Assembly: GCA_951812335.1 (NCBI GenBank)
Contig: OX638293.1
Span: forward strand, 1,534,731 to 1,598,730
Reading direction: 5' to 3'
Origin: Rhodothermales bacterium
GTDB lineage: Bacteria > Bacteroidota > Rhodothermia > Rhodothermales > VXPQ01
DNA: 64,000 bases
Of the stretch, positions 5,692 to 54,189 are shown in pieces. Below the pieces are notes generated by a model. The model saw only the letters and a program-made list of their open reading frames with translations, was not told the DNA's origin and made no database searches. Position 1 is the first letter of the stretch; each line of letters starts with the position of its first letter. Made by a program: the position numbers and the translations under genes.

Positions 5692-7071
5692 TCAAGCCGC
5701 ATTGTCGGGTGCATTGGCGTCGTTTGCCCGCTTGTCGGAAAGCGGAGCGCGTCGTACATGCACGCGCCCTATCCGGTTGTTCTCGACCGTCACGATCCGC
5801 ATGACGAGACCCTCGATTTCCATCGTGTTGTCTTTCTCCGGGATCGTTCCCATCTCGTGGAAGATCAGCCCTCCGAGCGTTTCGAAATCGTATGATTCGG
5901 TGTCGAGCGAGGCGCCGAGCAGTTCGTTCACGTCGTCGAGATCGATACGCGCATCGAACAGGTACGTAGCGTCGTCGAGACGCTCGTAGAGTTGCTCTTC
6001 GCTTTCGTCGTGCTCGTCGCGGATTTCTCCCACGATTTCTTCCAGGATGTCTTCGAGCGTGACTAGTCCCGCCGTGCCTCCGTATTCGTCGACGACCACA
6101 GCCATATGGGTTTTTTTCGCTTGCAGATCCTTGAGCAGATCGTCCAGTTTCTTGCCCGGAGGCACGAAAATGGCTGGTCGGGCCACGTCCATCCAATCGA
6201 GAGGTGTGTCTCCATTAGCTCCCAGCAGATAGGGAAGCAAGTCCTTGGCGTACACAATGCCCAGCATGTTGTCGAGGTGATCGGCGTACAGCGGAATGCG
6301 CGAATGCCCCGTATTGCGGATCAATTCGAGGGCTTGCCCGATGTCGGCGGTCACCGGAAGCGCCACGATATCGAGGCGACTCACCATGATTTCCCGGACG
6401 GACGTTTCTCCGAACTCTACGATCGAATAAATAAGTTCTTTTTCTTCTTCTTCGAGGGTGCCGTGCGCTTCTCCCACATCGGCGAGCGTTTTCAGGTCTT
6501 CCGGGGAAATGCGCGTCCCTTCGGTTTCGAGGCGCTCGCGCATGAATCGTGTCGAACGAGCCAGGAAGTCGGACAGGGGATACAGGATGCGATGCAGTGC
6601 CGCCAGCGGTCCGGAAACCGCCCGGCTAAAGGCCTCGGCATAGCGTACCGCGAGCAACTTCGGTGTGATTTCGCTCATGACGAGGATGATGAAGGTCAGC
6701 ACCACGACTTCCAGAACGACCGTGACGGCGTAACTCCAGTCCATTGCCGCTGCGACCCTGGCGGTCAGCAGGGCGGCTACGATGGCGGCGGCCACGTTCG
6801 CTCCCGTGTTCAGGATCAGAATGGTGATGAGCAGTCGCCGGGGGCGTTCGAGAAGTTTCAGCACCCGCCTCGACGCGCGGTCGCCTGCTTCCGCAAGAGA
6901 TGCCTTCGCCAAACCGGTGAGCGAAAAAAGCGCCACCTCCGAACCGGAGAAGATTGCCGACATCAGGAGGAGTGCGAGCAGCGCAATGACGCAGGCGGCC
7001 ACGAATGTCCCGCTCAGCAATACGGGCGCATTCTGCAGGAGAATGAATAACGAAGCAGTGTCAGGGTCCAA
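5692..7071 (-). CDS. CNNM/HlyC-CorC family membrane protein with CBS pair (TlyC/GldE-like)
   Basis: A 459-residue integral membrane protein of the hemolysin C/CorC group. It begins with a DUF21 (CNNM) transmembrane domain of about 190 residues with the conserved SEITPK motif, continues with two CBS domains (about 210-330, including GHSRIPLYADHLD and MAVVVDEYGGTAGLVTLEDI) and ends with a CorC_HlyC domain. CNNM relatives export Mg2+; in Bacteroidota one paralogue, GldE, is tied to gliding, but nothing here separates these roles. It lies 75 bp upstream of purF on the same strand, and its own upstream region holds a MITE-like element. Confidence 0.9.
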   Translation of the reverse strand: MDPDTASLFILLQNAPVLLSGTFVAACVIALLALLLMSAIFSGSEVALFSLTGLAKASLAEAGDRASRRVLKLLERPRRLLITILILNTGANVAAAIVAALLTARVAAAMDWSYAVTVVLEVVVLTFIILVMSEITPKLLAVRYAEAFSRAVSGPLAALHRILYPLSDFLARSTRFMRERLETEGTRISPEDLKTLADVGEAHGTLEEEEKELIYSIVEFGETSVREIMVSRLDIVALPVTADIGQALELIRNTGHSRIPLYADHLDNMLGIVYAKDLLPYLLGANGDTPLDWMDVARPAIFVPPGKKLDDLLKDLQAKKTHMAVVVDEYGGTAGLVTLEDILEEIVGEIRDEHDESEEQLYERLDDATYLFDARIDLDDVNELLGASLDTESYDFETLGGLIFHEMGTIPEKDNTMEIEGLVMRIVTVENNRIGRVHVRRAPLSDKRANDANAPDNAA

Positions 7072-7107: not shown

Positions 7108-7363
7108 GGATACTCTGATTAAGTCTGCAAAGCTCAGAGGCTCAGAGGAGTGCGCTGGCAAGCAATGACGAAGCAGTGTGGCAAGGCCCCACATAATGAG
7201 GAATGACGCGGCCAGCGTGCTCCTCTCAGCCTCCCGAAGGGCGCTTCACGCCCGAAACGCTCCGAATCCGCAGTGTTTTCTGCTGATTTCAACGATGGAA
7301 TCATGACGTCCTTTACGCGTGAAAGTGAAGTGCTGGGCGAAGTGGACTTGATCTAGCGTATCC
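7108..7363 (+). mobile_element. MITE-like element, intact copy 1
   Basis: About 256 bp without an open frame, filling most of the 382-bp gap 7072-7453. The left end 7108-7125 (GGATACTCTGATTAAGTC) is repeated inverted at 7344-7363 with a few differences. Inside, a 21-bp arm at 7139-7159 pairs with 7211-7231 (18 Watson-Crick pairs, two G-T wobbles, one mismatch), and the loop holds a small second hairpin (TGTGG/CCACA). A near-identical copy lies inverted at 53933-54189 and permuted fragments at 15297-15450. No transposase is visible, so it would be non-autonomous. No clear target duplication is seen. Confidence 0.75.
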
Positions 7364-13445: not shown

Positions 13446-15182
13446 TCACCGCATTCGCACAAGCGAACGGGTTTCGTTGTAGGCCGTGCCGGAAAAACCT
13501 TCTATCCGTAAACGATAAAAATACGTACCCGACGGGAGTCCGGTTGCATCGAAGGGGATATGATACCATTGTTCGCCTTCCGCCGCTCCTTCGACGAGAT
13601 TCGCCACGCTGCGTCCGAGCGCATCGAACACGGTCAGGTGGACGATGCCGTCCTGGGGCAGATAATACCGGATCGTGGTGGCGTGCAGGAACGGGTCCGG
13701 ATAGTTTTCGGTGAGCACATGCCGTTCCGGGCGTTCGAGGACGGCGGCGACAGTAGCCAGCAACTGTTCTCGCCCTCTTACCGAACGGCCATAGAGCCGG
13801 TACGATATTTGCCCCGGATACGTTGCGCCCCCGTCCGTGAAATCGCCCGGATGCGGCTCCTCTTCCTCGAAAATGATCACGGACGCGCTGCCTTCCACGC
13901 GCTCTACGCGATAGGCGGCGATGTCGCGGGCGTCGAGAAATTCCCAGGACAGATGCACCACGCCGTCCTTGTCGCTCCGGGCGGCAAGCGCGGCGCGGCC
14001 GAGCGGGGCATTGCCGGTTACGAGCAGGGTGCGGATGCGCTTGACCAGATCGTCGAAGATCGCAAGATTGTTCTCCCCCGGGCAGCTCGTAGCGGCGCCG
14101 GGAAACTGGCCGTGTCCGCGCAGGTTGTCCGGCGAGACGCCGTAATTTTCGGAAAGGAACGAAAAGGTAACGGCCAGCGAATCGAAAGTCGGCGGCGCCA
14201 GCGTGTCTATGCACCGGGCGATATAGGGGGGATGGTAGCACCCCAGCATGCATACCCCGATGTTGCCGGTGTTATGGCCGCCCACATGCGCGCCCATCGC
14301 CAGCGCGGGCACGGAATCCAGCGAGGCGTCGCCCTGCAAAAAGGGCCGACCCTGGTAGAGCCGGCCGCTTTGATCCAGTACGAAATGGTATCCGATGTCG
14401 CTCCATCCCCGGATATTCTGGTGCAGGTCCTGGATGGCTTTCAGTTGCTCCAGTCCCTCTTCGTGCGTGGTAGCCCAGAAACCGGCGGCATGGTGGAAGG
14501 CCATGTTCCGGTAATCGGGCCGGGCCAGCGCCACGGGATCGCCCCGGAAGGGGTCGGCGTTCCATGCCGCCCTGTCGTACATGAAGGGCGGGACGATGAT
14601 ACCCGTTTTCTGCAGATGCGCTTCGCCGGTTTCTTCGGGAGGCGCTTCTTCCTGATCGCCTCGTTCCCCTTCGCGCTTCTCGACGGATTCTGCTTCCCGG
14701 TCCGCATCCCTGCGGTTATCGAAAACGCCTGCGGCGGAGAGGCGAACGGACGCCCGCGTTTCGAAGCGCGTCTCGAACCGGCCCGCCGTAAACACGTCCT
14801 CCCCGTGAAAACCGGCGAAGAAGGTATCTCCGGTGGCGGAAAACACGATGCGCAGCGCGCGCCAGGGACCGTCTTCGAAGCGTACCCATCCGGTCAGATT
14901 CCGGTCCGAAGCGGTTCCCTGTACGACGAAGCCGGTAGCCTCGGCGGGGATGGGTTCGGTGATCCATGCCGGTTCTCCCGTTTTGGAGAGAGGGGACGGC
15001 GCCAGCGTGACGGCGTCGGTTCCCAGATCGGCGAACAGGGAAGTCGCAGGCTGCGCGGCGGCGGGAAGGGAGGCCGCAGTCCACCCCATACATCCCAGCA
15101 GGACGGTCATACACAGCGACAATGCGCGCAGCCGCTTTTTCCGGAGTGTCCTGACGGGATACCGCATAAAAGATCGGGTCAT
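13446..15182 (-). CDS. secreted N-acetylmuramoyl-L-alanine amidase (PGRP/Amidase_2) with T9SS tail
   Basis: A 578-residue exported protein: signal peptide (about 1-43, ending AAAQ), a beta-rich N-terminal region, an Amidase_2/PGRP domain (about 205-385) and a C-terminal sorting domain. The amidase domain has Zn-site candidates in MAFHHAAGF and HGQFPGAATSCPG, plus DIGYHFVLDQSGRLYQGRP, and should cleave the lactyl-amide bond of peptidoglycan stem peptides. A fibronectin-like segment follows, then LTENYPDPFLHATTIRYYLP and GTYFYRLRIEG, a recognisable T9SS type A sorting domain, so it should reach the cell surface or medium. A very acidic stretch (EAESVEKREGERGDQEEAPPEE region, about 172-195) links the domains. 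Confidence 0.9.
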   Translation of the reverse strand: MTRSFMRYPVRTLRKKRLRALSLCMTVLLGCMGWTAASLPAAAQPATSLFADLGTDAVTLAPSPLSKTGEPAWITEPIPAEATGFVVQGTASDRNLTGWVRFEDGPWRALRIVFSATGDTFFAGFHGEDVFTAGRFETRFETRASVRLSAAGVFDNRRDADREAESVEKREGERGDQEEAPPEETGEAHLQKTGIIVPPFMYDRAAWNADPFRGDPVALARPDYRNMAFHHAAGFWATTHEEGLEQLKAIQDLHQNIRGWSDIGYHFVLDQSGRLYQGRPFLQGDASLDSVPALAMGAHVGGHNTGNIGVCMLGCYHPPYIARCIDTLAPPTFDSLAVTFSFLSENYGVSPDNLRGHGQFPGAATSCPGENNLAIFDDLVKRIRTLLVTGNAPLGRAALAARSDKDGVVHLSWEFLDARDIAAYRVERVEGSASVIIFEEEEPHPGDFTDGGATYPGQISYRLYGRSVRGREQLLATVAAVLERPERHVLTENYPDPFLHATTIRYYLPQDGIVHLTVFDALGRSVANLVEGAAEGEQWYHIPFDATGLPSGTYFYRLRIEGFSGTAYNETRSLVRMR

Positions 15183-15296
15183 ACGCAGGGGACAGGACGC
15201 TTACGCACCCGCATGGCGGACGGGTTTCCACCGGACAGCCATATATGATTCGGGAGGGCGTTTATGCCGCGCGCACGGTTATGCGAAAGCGCAGTC

Positions 15297-15450
15297 TCCC
15301 GAAGGGCGCTTCCCGCCCGCGATGCCCCGCATCCGAAGCGTTTCTCGCTGATTTCAACGATGGAACCATGACATGGATTCTGATTAAGTCCGCGAAGATC
15401 AGAGGCTGCGAGGGGTGGGCTGGCAAGGAATGACGAAGCAGTGCGGGGCC
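15297..15450 (+). mobile_element. MITE-like element, two abutting partial copies in permuted order
   Basis: 15297-15372 matches the right module of the intact elements (CCCGAAGGGCGCTTC to the CATGAC following TTTCAACGATGGA). It is followed directly by 15375-15450, which matches their left end (GGATTCTGATTAAGTC, then the left hairpin arm and AATGACGAAGCAGTG). The right hairpin arm and the outer right terminus are missing. The order is therefore right half then left half, opposite to the copies at 7108 and 53933. It lies between the amidase and PorV-like genes, just upstream of the amidase start. Confidence 0.7.
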
Positions 15451-15461
15451 TGAGAGCATTC

Positions 15462-16502
15462 TTAAAATCCGAGATCGATCGTGAACCAGTGCGTCTGTTC
15501 GAGGCGCCCGAAATCCGCCCAGGCATAGTCGATGCGGACACGGAGCGCCCTGTCGATACGAAGATTCAGACCTCCTCCCATGGTAAGCCCCTGTTCGCCG
15601 TTTGCCTCGAACAGGTTGCGGTAGCCTGCCCGCAACGCGATCAGATTCCGGAAGTCATACTCTGCGCCGAAGTTCAGGTATTCGTAGTTATCGTTCGGGT
15701 GGGTTGCGTCGGTGGAAAGCACGAAGGTATGATTCGCGGTCTCCAGGGCATCCCAGGACAGGCCGATCCGAAACAGGAGCGGCAGCGGATGCCGGTCCAG
15801 CAGGTATTCGGAATTGACGATCTCCACCACGCCGCCCTGGTTGGGCGTCGGGTCCGTGCTGAACACGATGTCGCGCCCGCCCATTTGCATCTTCGGCCCG
15901 AAGTTCGAGAAACTGGCGCCGAGGCGCAGACGCTCGTAGGGCGTCGTGAACAGCGTACCCACATCGAGGGCAATGGACGACGCCGTGCTGTGCCAGATGC
16001 GTTCCTGAATGAACTTGAAGCTTCCGCCGATGGAGAAGCGGTCCGTCAGCCCTCGCCCGTACGATACCTGGATAGCGTAATTCTGCACCTTGAAGCGTTC
16101 TCCGGTGCCTTCCGGCTGTGCGATCGTCCGCACGAGCATATCCCCGGAGTCGAGGTAGATCAACGAAGCGGCCAGCGTGCCTGCATTGCCGAGCGAAGTA
16201 CCGAACGCAGCGAAATTGTAGGCGATGTCGGCAAGATACCGGGTGTGCGCCAGCTGCACGGAGGCGCCGGACAGAAGAGCGAGGCCCGCCGGATTCCAGT
16301 ACATGGCGGACAGGTCGTTTGCCTGGGCGACAAACGCGCCTCCCAGCGCAATGGGCCGGGCGCCCACGCCGAGTTTCAGGAATTGCGCTGCCGTCGCGCC
16401 CGTTTTTGTAACGGTCTTGTTCCGGGGCGCCGCCGCATTTTCCTGCCCCCGGACTTCAAGGGGCAGCATCAGGAGGACAGCTATCGCAGCGAGATATCTC
16501 AT
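15462..16502 (-). CDS. PorV/PorQ-like outer-membrane barrel protein (cluster A)
   Basis: A 346-residue outer-membrane barrel of the PorV/PorQ family (FadL-like fold). It has a signal peptide (about 1-19, ending RGQE), then the family's typical N-terminal segment AAQFLKLGVGARPIALGGAFVAQANDLSAMYWNPAGLA and a C-terminus ending in Phe (WFTIDLGF) as in many barrels. PorV carries T9SS substrates to the surface in Bacteroidota; many paralogues in this phylum have no tested role. It follows the 1151-residue surface protein gene by 13 bp, so it is very likely in its operon. Confidence 0.88.
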   Translation of the reverse strand: MRYLAAIAVLLMLPLEVRGQENAAAPRNKTVTKTGATAAQFLKLGVGARPIALGGAFVAQANDLSAMYWNPAGLALLSGASVQLAHTRYLADIAYNFAAFGTSLGNAGTLAASLIYLDSGDMLVRTIAQPEGTGERFKVQNYAIQVSYGRGLTDRFSIGGSFKFIQERIWHSTASSIALDVGTLFTTPYERLRLGASFSNFGPKMQMGGRDIVFSTDPTPNQGGVVEIVNSEYLLDRHPLPLLFRIGLSWDALETANHTFVLSTDATHPNDNYEYLNFGAEYDFRNLIALRAGYRNLFEANGEQGLTMGGGLNLRIDRALRVRIDYAWADFGRLEQTHWFTIDLGF

Positions 16503-48467: not shown

Positions 48468-49886
48468 ATGCGCAAGACAATACAATCGGAAAGCGGCATT
48501 ATGTGGCACGACAATATCATTGGTACCATAGGCAAGACCCCTCTCGTACGGCTTCGCAGGATTACGGCGGACTGGCCCTGTACGGTGCTGGCCAAACTGG
48601 AGTATTTCAATCCGGGCGGGTCTGTCAAGGATCGCATCGGTATGGCTATGATCGAAGAGGCCGAAAAAAACGGTTTGTTGGGGCCGGGAGGGACCATTGT
48701 CGAGGGTACGAGCGGGAATACAGGCGCAGCGCTGGCAATGGCGGCCGTGACGCGTGGATACCGGTGTGTTTTTACGACCACCGACAAGCAGAGCCAGGAA
48801 AAACTGGATGTTTTGCGGGCCTTGGGCGCCGAGGTGATCGTATGTCCGACCAACGTAGCCCCTGAGGATCCGAGGTCCTATTACTCCGTGGCGCAGCGTT
48901 TTGCCGAAGAAATCCCCGGTGCGGTATACCTGAACCAGTACGACAACCCGGCAAATCAGGCAGCTCATTACGAAACGACCGGGCCCGAGATATGGGCGGA
49001 CACCGATGGACGGATCACCCATTATGTGGTGGGTGCGGGCACGGGCGGAACGCTTTCCGGCGTATCGCGCTATCTCAAAGAGCAGAATCCGGAGGTGCAG
49101 ATTATCGGCGTCGATCCTTGCGGCTCGATCTATCACGGATATTTCCATACCGGGCAGGTTGCCCCGGGCGACATTTACCCCTACCTGACGGAAGGGGTCG
49201 GCGAGGACTTGCTGGCTGCAAATATGGATTTCGATTTGCCGGACGATTTCGTGCAGGTAACGGATCGGGAGGCGATGCGGATGACGCGCCGACTTGCCGC
49301 GGAAGAAGGCCTGTTTTGCGGGCAATCTTCCGGCATGGCGCTTGCAGGGGCGCTGTCGTGGATGGAGGCACACGCCGAAGAGCTTTCCAGCAACGATGTG
49401 TTCGTGTTGCTTTTGCCCGATTCGGGATTCCGGTATCTTTCGAAGACGTACAATGACAATTGGATGCGTAATCACGGTTTTATGTCGAGCATGCCGGAGG
49501 TTACGGTGGACCGGGTTCTGGGTGCTAGGGATGACAACGAGCAGCTGGCATATGCTACGCCCGAAGACACGCTTGGCTCGGTAATCGGAGTCATGGCCGA
49601 GCGCGGCATCTCGCAGATGCCCGTGATGCGAAACGATGAGCTTGTCGGAAGCCTTACGGAAAGTGTGATTATGGACCGCCTCGTCAAAGACCCGGAAACG
49701 CGAGACCAGCCTGTGGAAGACATCATGGATGCGCCTTTTCCGGTGGTTCCACGTACACTTGGCCTTGAGCATCTTTCCATGTACCTTGAGCAGGGAGGCG
49801 GGGCCGTGCTTGTTAAATCGGCGCCGGGAGAGACGTATCAGATCATCACCAAAAGCGACCTGATCGGCGCCTTGGCGCCGTCATGA
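48468..49886 (+). CDS. cystathionine beta-synthase
   Basis: PLP enzyme that condenses serine (or O-acetylserine) with homocysteine or sulfide. The 472-residue protein has the PLP Lys54 in NPGGSVKDR, the SGNTG loop (EGTSGNTGAAL), GAGTGGTLSG and a C-terminal pair of CBS domains (about 345-470). This layout fits cystathionine beta-synthase better than plain cysteine synthase. A second possible start is ATG 48501 (MWHDNIIGTIG), which fits the usual N-terminus. Its last codons (KSDLIGALAPS, stop) are the first unit of a 35-bp tandem array, and the stop overlaps the ATG of the next mini-frame. Confidence 0.9.
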   Translation: MRKTIQSESGIMWHDNIIGTIGKTPLVRLRRITADWPCTVLAKLEYFNPGGSVKDRIGMAMIEEAEKNGLLGPGGTIVEGTSGNTGAALAMAAVTRGYRCVFTTTDKQSQEKLDVLRALGAEVIVCPTNVAPEDPRSYYSVAQRFAEEIPGAVYLNQYDNPANQAAHYETTGPEIWADTDGRITHYVVGAGTGGTLSGVSRYLKEQNPEVQIIGVDPCGSIYHGYFHTGQVAPGDIYPYLTEGVGEDLLAANMDFDLPDDFVQVTDREAMRMTRRLAAEEGLFCGQSSGMALAGALSWMEAHAEELSSNDVFVLLLPDSGFRYLSKTYNDNWMRNHGFMSSMPEVTVDRVLGARDDNEQLAYATPEDTLGSVIGVMAERGISQMPVMRNDELVGSLTESVIMDRLVKDPETRDQPVEDIMDAPFPVVPRTLGLEHLSMYLEQGGGAVLVKSAPGETYQIITKSDLIGALAPS

Positions 49887-49921
49887 AAAGCGACCCGATC
49901 GGCGCCCTGGCGCCGTCATGA
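49883..49921 (+). CDS. mini-frame 1 of the ATGA-linked chain (12 residues)
   Basis: Encodes MKSDPIGALAPS and stops. Its ATG overlaps the stop of cystathionine beta-synthase (ATGA) and its stop overlaps the next ATG. The peptide repeats the enzyme's own last residues. Translation is not shown by sequence alone. Confidence 0.35.
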   Translation: MKSDPIGALAPS

Positions 49922-49956
49922 AAAGCGACCCGATCGGCGCCCTGACCCCGTCATGA
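49918..49956 (+). CDS. mini-frame 2 of the ATGA-linked chain (12 residues)
   Basis: Encodes MKSDPIGALTPS; linked by ATGA overlaps on both sides. Differs from mini-frame 1 by Ala to Thr. Confidence 0.35.
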   Translation: MKSDPIGALTPS

Positions 49957-49991
49957 AAAGCGACCTGATCGGCGCCCTGACCCCGTCATGA
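49953..49991 (+). CDS. mini-frame 3 of the ATGA-linked chain (12 residues)
   Basis: Encodes MKSDLIGALTPS; linked by ATGA overlaps on both sides. Pro at position 5 is Leu, as in the enzyme's own tail. Confidence 0.35.
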   Translation: MKSDLIGALTPS

Positions 49992-50026
49992 AAAACGATC
50001 CGATCGGCGCCCTGACCCCGTCATGA
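49988..50026 (+). CDS. mini-frame 4 of the ATGA-linked chain (12 residues)
   Basis: Encodes MKNDPIGALTPS; linked by ATGA overlaps on both sides. It has one further synonymous change (GAC to GAT). Confidence 0.35.
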   Translation: MKNDPIGALTPS

Positions 50027-50106
50027 AAAACGACCGGTGCTTTGTCCGCCGCAAGCGTACCCTAAAGGATTGCCGGTTCTTCCGAACCATCTCTCAAATC
50101 GCGTGA
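50023..50106 (+). CDS. last frame of the ATGA-linked chain (27 residues)
   Basis: Starts like the others (MKND) but leaves the repeat and reads on as a basic, Cys-containing peptide (RCFVRRKRTLKDCRFF...) to a TGA at 50104-50106, 7 bp before the iolG ATG. It resembles no family I know; its possible value is to bring ribosomes to the iolG start. Confidence 0.3.
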   Translation: MKNDRCFVRRKRTLKDCRFFRTISQIA

Positions 50107-53932: not shown

Positions 53933-54189
53933 GGATACTCCGATCAAAATCACTTCGCCCGGCACTTTACTTTCGCGCATAAAGGACGTCATGATTCCAT
54001 CGTTGAAATCAGCAGAAAACACTGCGGATTCGGGGCGTCGCGGACGTGAAGCACCCTTCGGGAGGCTGCGAGGGGCACGCTGGCCGCGTCGTCCTTCCTC
54101 ATTATGTAGGGCCTGCCACACTGCTTCGTCATTCCTTGCCGGCGCATCCCTCTCAGCCTCTGAGCTTTGCGGACTTAATCAGAGTATCC
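53933..54189 (-). mobile_element. MITE-like element, intact copy 2 (inverted)
   Basis: About 257 bp, near-identical in order and length to 7108-7363 but inverted. Termini 53933-53951 (GGATACTCCGATCAAAATC) and 54171-54189 (complement of GGATACTCTGATTAAGTCC) form terminal inverted repeats. The 21-bp hairpin arms are 54064-54084 and 54138-54158; several positions that differ from copy 1 still pair, some as G-T wobble. It separates iolE from iolB and starts directly at the iolE stop. No transposase and no clear target duplication. Confidence 0.78.

What the first reader, a model, noticed from the sequence alone, without database searches (positions are those of the whole stretch)
15297..15450. 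Permuted version of the MITE-like element
The right module of the element is followed directly by the left end of an element in the same orientation; the outer right end and the right hairpin arm are missing. Two tandem elements later trimmed, or a circular intermediate, would give this order. It tells something about how the element moves.
Basis: partly seen in the sequence, partly recalled or inferred. Interest (0 to 1): 0.5.

Follow-up and report, generated by a model that had tools for sequence, protein, structure and literature searches.

The report
Worn relic of nested mobile elements
The odd back-to-front order is best read as the worn remains of one small mobile DNA element that had landed inside another copy of itself, an ordinary kind of event in this element family that needs no circular intermediate.

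Summary
The order is real. Window 15290-15374 matches element positions 117-201 (E 6.6e-21). The next base starts the left end of another copy, matched to 15446 (E 7.9e-20).

The element is a ~254-bp MITE found in 6 of 6 genomes of one uncultured Rhodothermales genus and 0 of 24 others searched. It has 4-bp target duplications and shares its ends with broken IS5-family genes in a sister genome.

An interior-to-left-end junction at position 201 recurs inside nested copies. Three G000 loci, copies of one composite, hold outer 1-201, a complete inner copy, then outer 202-254. A fourth has CATGACAT|GGATAC around a 15-bp relic, with outer 202-254 still downstream. One 516-bp nested unit is absent from two sister genomes, whose empty site shows a clean CATA duplication, so nested units move whole.

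The locus is shared with the nearest sister genome and empty in three others. Best reading: a nested insertion eroded by deletions; neither circle nor head-to-tail array is needed. New family of a known kind; modest interest.

The parts
15290..15374 (+). Outer copy: element positions 117-201 (left 1-116 lost; starts inside the right hairpin arm)
   Evidence: nhmmer 69.7 bits, E 6.6e-21
15375..15448 (+). Inner copy: left end GGA(--)CTCTGATTAAG... to about position 80, with the left hairpin arm at about 15404-15426
   Evidence: nhmmer 66.1 bits, E 7.9e-20 for 15378-15446; G004 reads GGACTCTGATTAAG
15449..15461 (+). Worn right end (TGAGAGCATTC against TCAGAGCATCC); cannot tell whether it is the inner's or the outer's
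   Evidence: 9 of 11 matches abutting an xTAx site; 1 of 2 such sites among 3,837, the other being a true end
15462..15465 (.). TTAA, the remaining copy of the target site; CTAA in the empty relatives G001, G002, G005; overlaps the stop codon of the PorV-like gene
15462..16502 (-). Neighbour gene: PorV/PorQ-like outer-membrane protein, 346 aa (name from my own reading, no family search made)
   Evidence: 90-99% identical in the five other genomes of the genus
13446..15182 (-). Neighbour gene: amidase-like protein, 578 aa (name from my own reading)
7108..7363 (+). Intact standard-order copy; its site is empty in G003 and G004
   Evidence: 280.0 bits
53933..54189 (-). Intact standard-order copy
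   Evidence: 287.6 bits

Best explanation
The locus is the eroded remains of a nested insertion of an IS5-family MITE. One copy (inner) sat at about position 201 of another copy (outer), in the same orientation. The nested unit, or the part from the outer's left end to the inner's right end, inserted at a CTAA target over the stop codon of a PorV-like gene in the common ancestor of this genome and G004. Two deletions then wore it down. One removed the left target copy and outer 1-116, with possible GC(A/G)CAG microhomology. The other joined inner position about 82 to about 246 of the inner's or outer's right end. Shown: the order, the orthologous filled and empty sites, interior-to-left-end junctions at 201 in nested copies elsewhere, and movement of a nested unit as a whole. 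Inferred: that this locus descends from such a unit, and the two deletions.
For: Junction at outer 201 in three loci with both halves of the outer copy around a full inner copy, 563530-564045, 565438-565952 and 1303986-1304501 (three copies of one composite). The junction CATGACAT|GGATAC lies inside an otherwise complete element at 1657925. A 516-bp nested unit in L031 is absent from G004 and G003, whose empty site reads ...CAGCATAATCGG against CATA[unit]CATA in G000. The second unit of L031 is flanked by ATAA and TTAA where G003 has one ATAA and no insert; G004 has at that site only a left-end relic of about 42 bases with part of the right flank gone, so inserts do erode in this way. Filled site of the finding shared with G004, empty in G001, G002 and G005. 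Right-end relic abutting the target site. Internal deletions are common: 10 such joins. Family-wide 4-bp duplication: 14 of 59 full copies perfect, against a shuffled mean of 2.9 and maximum of 10 (a few of the 59 are copies of one composite).
Against: The outer 202-245 is gone here, so nesting is inferred from other loci. In the three copies of the L031 composite there are 3 extra bases (TAT) between outer 201 and the inner copy and 4 (ATAG) after it; these do not form a duplication (TTAT/ATAG, 2 of 4 bases) and uninterrupted siblings lack them, so how that junction first formed is not resolved. At the finding and at 1657925 there are no extra bases. The inner left end has lost two bases. The outer part here is not especially close to the copy at 1657925 (85 of 101 columns over outer and junction; not among the 11 nearest other places), so shared descent with that junction is not shown. 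A search of six genomes for that junction with up to 3 mismatches finds only 1657925; it cannot see junctions as worn as the finding. No left target copy remains.
Confidence: 0.74

Rival explanations
1. Two separate insertions side by side: an older copy to the left and a shortened copy at the stop codon, joined by a deletion that removed the outer right end and the inner's left target copy.
For: Shortened copies and an adjacent head-to-tail pair at 206728-207239 exist.
Against: The deletion would have to stop exactly at the inner left end and also at outer position 201, the coordinate found in the nested copies. My rough estimate for that coincidence is of the order of 1 in 1,000 (not computed by a call).
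Confidence: 0.14
2. Circular or self-inserted intermediate: the left end attacked position ~201 of the same copy, giving a circle with junction 201|1 that was later opened and inserted.
For: It predicts a 201|1 junction and the lack of 202-245. A junction at this coordinate occurs in two sequence lineages besides the finding.
Against: In all 5 other interior|left-end junctions seen the outer continues after the inner copy. A right-end relic sits at the target site here. None of the 9 of 11 head-to-tail pattern matches that I looked at showed two full copies. Circle junctions in reads could not be checked.
Confidence: 0.07
3. Trimmed head-to-tail array of full copies.
For: One adjacent full pair exists (206728-207239).
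Against: A trimmed array would give a 254|1 junction or random breakpoints, not 201|1. One such pair among 61 full copies in the held sequence.
Confidence: 0.05

Closest known systems
MITEs of IS5-family insertion sequences (IS5_4 model NF033581)
   Same: Ends shared with IS5-family transposase remnants in a sister genome, 4-bp target duplication with central TA, no coding capacity, high copy number
   Different: No intact transposase with these ends was found in the six genomes of the genus (several are fragmented assemblies); 254 bp with a long internal hairpin that is not obviously derived from the IS
Elements inserted into elements in Haloquadratum walsbyi (PMC3119063)
   Same: Mobile elements found inside other mobile elements (192 events in its Table 5; passages seen); some MITEs that moved although no working copy of the matching transposase was found
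   Different: There the MITEs sit in other element classes; here a copy sits in a copy of the same family and the nested unit moves
Composite units bounded by two miniature elements (TIME-COMP, PMC13367494)
   Same: A unit carrying more than one miniature element moves as a whole (only the search listing with the start of the abstract was seen)
   Different: Tn3-derived, bounded by two copies; here it is one copy inside another

Membership tests
MITE | Short, non-coding, terminal inverted repeats | tested here: met
   254-bp consensus with ends GGATACTCTGATTAAG / TTGATCAGAGTATCC
MITE | Target-site duplication | tested here: met
   4-bp: 14 of 59 perfect, shuffled mean 2.9, maximum 10; clean CATA at one empty site, ATAA/TTAA at another. 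The empty site of 7108 is ambiguous at 2-4 bp
MITE | Dispersed repeat with recent mobility | tested here: met
   357 end matches in the genome, 0 in the reversed control; 18 full copies in 400,000 bp of roughly evenly placed stretches; empty sites in sister genomes
IS5-family MITE | Ends shared with an autonomous IS5-family element | tested here: met
   L100 in G004: GGATACTCTGATTTAATC ... GGATTGATCAGAGTATCC around a broken transposase. The sister fragment L093 scores 142.9 bits on NF033581, cut-off 140; L097 134.6, just below; an intact relative in G029 336 bits. The remnants themselves are not autonomous
IS5-family MITE | Functional transposase acting on these ends | not testable with these tools
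   No match to the parent transposase in this genome; the three G004 copies are incomplete
Nested insertion | Both halves of the outer copy flank the inner copy at this locus | tested here: not met
   Outer 202-245 is absent here; met at 563530, 565438, 1303986 and 1184255-1184700 and at the relic of 1657925
Circular intermediate / head-to-tail array | Right end joined to left end through a short spacer between two copies | tested here: not met
   Not at this locus. One adjacent full pair elsewhere; 11 pattern matches in six genomes, 9 looked at, no full head-to-tail pair

The most novel reading that the evidence does not exclude
Nesting at preferred internal sites (about 201, 176 and 146) makes new units with mixed ends. 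Units of inner left end plus outer right end (full copy + TTA(A) + positions 176/177-254) occur at four places in the held sequence, one with a perfect TATA duplication. The window locus would be the mirror type, outer left end plus inner right end. The family would thus breed permuted derivatives by choosing among alternative ends, and the 201 site may even be a self-insertion hot spot.
Probability: 0.25. Interest if true: 0.45.

Novelty: new member of a known kind. Interest (0 to 1): 0.27.

Why it matters
The locus itself is a relic. Its use is that this genus offers orthologous filled and empty sites for a high-copy IS5-type MITE. They show that copies land in copies, that the nested unit then moves as one piece, and that the permuted order needs no circular intermediate. 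This gives a simple account that could be tested for modular, permuted short repeats in other genomes.

Tried and rejected
Rfam scan of the window: 0 matches at gathering score. The TTAT/ATAG flanks of the nested inner copy as a target duplication: not supported by uninterrupted siblings. Flanks of the hybrid unit at 1136144 in G003, G004 and G005: the region is rearranged in G003 and G004 and only one flank matched in G005, so no clean empty site. A MAFFT alignment of the orthologous intergenic regions misplaced the filled and empty sites; I read them by eye. A letter search for the empty site of the second unit of L031 returned nothing; a BLAST of its flanks found it. A pattern for right module before left end gave 14 matches in 4 genomes, of which I recognised 4 as element interior; the other 10 look like ordinary flanks and were not read further. 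Literature searches for nested, composite or IS5-type bacterial MITEs gave general parallels only; they do not show that mixed-end units are unreported. The taxonomy look-up only fixed the class name. L147 and L148, fetched, gave no profile match and were not used.

Full report
Observation. In the window the family has two intact copies, 7108-7363 (+) and 53933-54189 (-), and one odd locus. A profile built from 52 distinct full copies places 15290-15374 at positions 117-201 and 15378-15446 at positions 6-74. Bases 15375-15377 are GGA, so the inner left end starts directly after outer position 201, two bases short. After position about 80 the sequence jumps to CCTGAGAGCATTC and then TTAA. Only this site and the true end at 53933, of 3,837 xTAx sites on both strands, follow an 11-mer with at least 9 of 11 matches to the family's right end. 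The TTAA overlaps the stop codon (15462-15464, minus strand) of a PorV-like gene.

The family. The window's genome is one contig of 2,686,407 bp. The 18-base left end with up to 3 mismatches gives 357 matches, the reversed control 0; right ends also match within 3 mismatches, so this is roughly 180 elements or pieces. Twenty 20-kb stretches (400,000 bp, roughly evenly placed) held 18 full copies, about 120 if extrapolated. A copy from the window finds relatives in 6 of 6 genomes of the genus and 0 of 24 other genomes of the order. Named records of the same or near genomes are Rhodothermales metagenome assemblies: OX638295.1 has the contig length of G004, JAJECT010000037.1 and JAJDWX010000037.1 those of the G001 and G002 contigs. 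Four-base duplications are perfect in 14 of 59 full copies, against a shuffled mean of 2.9 and maximum of 10 in 200 shuffles. Other lengths stand out less: at 2 bp 7 copies match against a mean of 3.0 and a maximum of 7, at 3 bp 3 against 2.7. A few of the 59 are copies of one composite. The flanks favour TTAA, CTAA, CATA and similar sites.

Parent. Three transposase remnants in G004 carry the same ends: L100 has both, L093 and L097 the right end. L093 scores 142.9 bits on the IS5-family model NF033581 (cut-off 140), L097 134.6 (below), and an intact relative in another genus (L103 in G029) 336 bits. The ends of the latter read GGAATGTCTGATCAA and GGATGTTCTGATTTA. No match to this transposase was found in the window's genome. 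The one PF01609 match in this genome (636280-636654) has no such end, with up to 5 mismatches, in its 3.4-kb locus. That IS5 elements favour CTAG-like 4-bp targets is recalled, not from a call.

History of the locus. The PorV-like gene is 90-99% identical in all five genus relatives. G004 (99%) has the same permuted insert. In G001, G002 and G005 the stop codon TAG (CTAA on the plus strand) is followed by ordinary spacer without an insert; the G005 contig ends 57 bases beyond the gene but reaches across the site. G003 has lost the spacer from the stop codon to near the next gene. So there was one insertion on the branch to G000 and G004, or before G003 split with loss there. The left flank continues as GCGCGGTT...GCGCAG against GCACAG in G005, so the left target copy and outer 1-116 may have gone in one deletion, perhaps by microhomology (read by eye).

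Why nested. One search lists same-strand joins in 570,883 held bases (124 profile hits, 61 full copies; not an unbiased sample, as many stretches were picked for hits). Element interior to left end: 201|1 at 563731, 565752 and 1304187 with 3 extra bases between, 146|1 at 1184554, and this locus. The profile hides one more inside a copy counted as full: 1657925, found by pattern and read, with CATGACAT|GGATACTCTGATTAA followed by the outer's 202-254. In all 5 others the outer continues downstream. Three are copies of one composite, so there are three lineages. A pattern of the last junction with up to 3 mismatches hits only that place in six genomes. Nested units move: the 516-bp unit at L031 1531-2046 is flanked by CATA on both sides, while G004 and G003 read one CATA and no insert. 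The second unit of L031 (3439-3953) has ATAA and TTAA at its borders; G003 reads one ATAA and no insert, and G004 has only a left-end relic of about 42 bases there with part of the right flank lost, an eroded insert much like the finding. In G004 another nested unit (L135) is flanked by TATA on both sides.

Mixed-end units. Four G000 loci (1072024, 1136144, 2255845, 2643505) have a full copy, TTA or TTAA, then positions 176/177-254, with no outer left half. At 2643505 the unit is flanked by TATA on both sides. Of 70 copies spanning the region, 17 carry CTAA or TTAA at about 170-183, a fitting target. By symmetry the window locus could be the opposite mixed unit, outer left plus inner right. 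I cannot separate this from a complete nested unit with one deletion.

Results against. The inner copy of the L031 lineage is not bordered by a clean duplication within its outer, and siblings lack the extra TAT and ATAG. The outer part of the window locus is not closest to the copy at 1657925. The empty site of the 7108 copy fits a duplication of 2, 3 or 4 bases. Of the four mixed-end units only 2643505 has a perfect duplication; the others read TTAA/TTAT, TATA/TGTA and CATG/CGTA.

Literature. Passages of PMC3119063 report 192 events of one mobile element inside another, and some MITEs that moved although no working copy of the matching transposase was found. A passage of PMC3852290 separates nested elements as a step of its pipeline. 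In the review PMC10969869 the tool counts no occurrence of nested, tandem or circular in the main text. Passages of PMC3049150 describe modular pneumococcal repeats. PMC13367494 was seen only in the search listing.

Verdict. A real, ordinary relic of a new IS5-type MITE family (new to me; no search of IS or MITE databases was possible). The order is explained by nesting plus two deletions; a circle or head-to-tail array is not needed.

Noticed in passing
G000 563530-564045, 565438-565952, 1303986-1304501: The inner copy and both junctions are nearly identical in three nested units while the outer halves of one (565438-565952) are diverged, as if the inner copy with short flanks had been spread by gene conversion (read by eye).
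   Followed up: partly
G000 738280-738467, 844171-844350, 2088706-2088892: Recurrent derivative of about 180-188 bp with an internal deletion near 143/205; many ~142-bp matches to positions 1-145 in G003 and G005.
   Followed up: no
L139 around 690-706, L141 around 580-591, L142 around 588-600: Copies sitting 3-4 bases after a lone GTATCC with no element upstream; possibly footprints of older copies or a target preference.
   Followed up: no
49811-50035: Tandem array of a 35-bp unit (TCATGAAAAGCGACCCGATCGGCGCCCTGGCGCCG type), five or more copies.
   Followed up: no
7042-7066: Weak match to element positions 53-79 (E 1.1) just upstream of the intact copy at 7108; may be an older relic or chance.
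   Followed up: no
L135 (G004) 768-1280: Nested unit whose outer copy also carries an inverted piece of the element (positions 136-227 on the other strand), flanked by TATA on both sides.
   Followed up: partly
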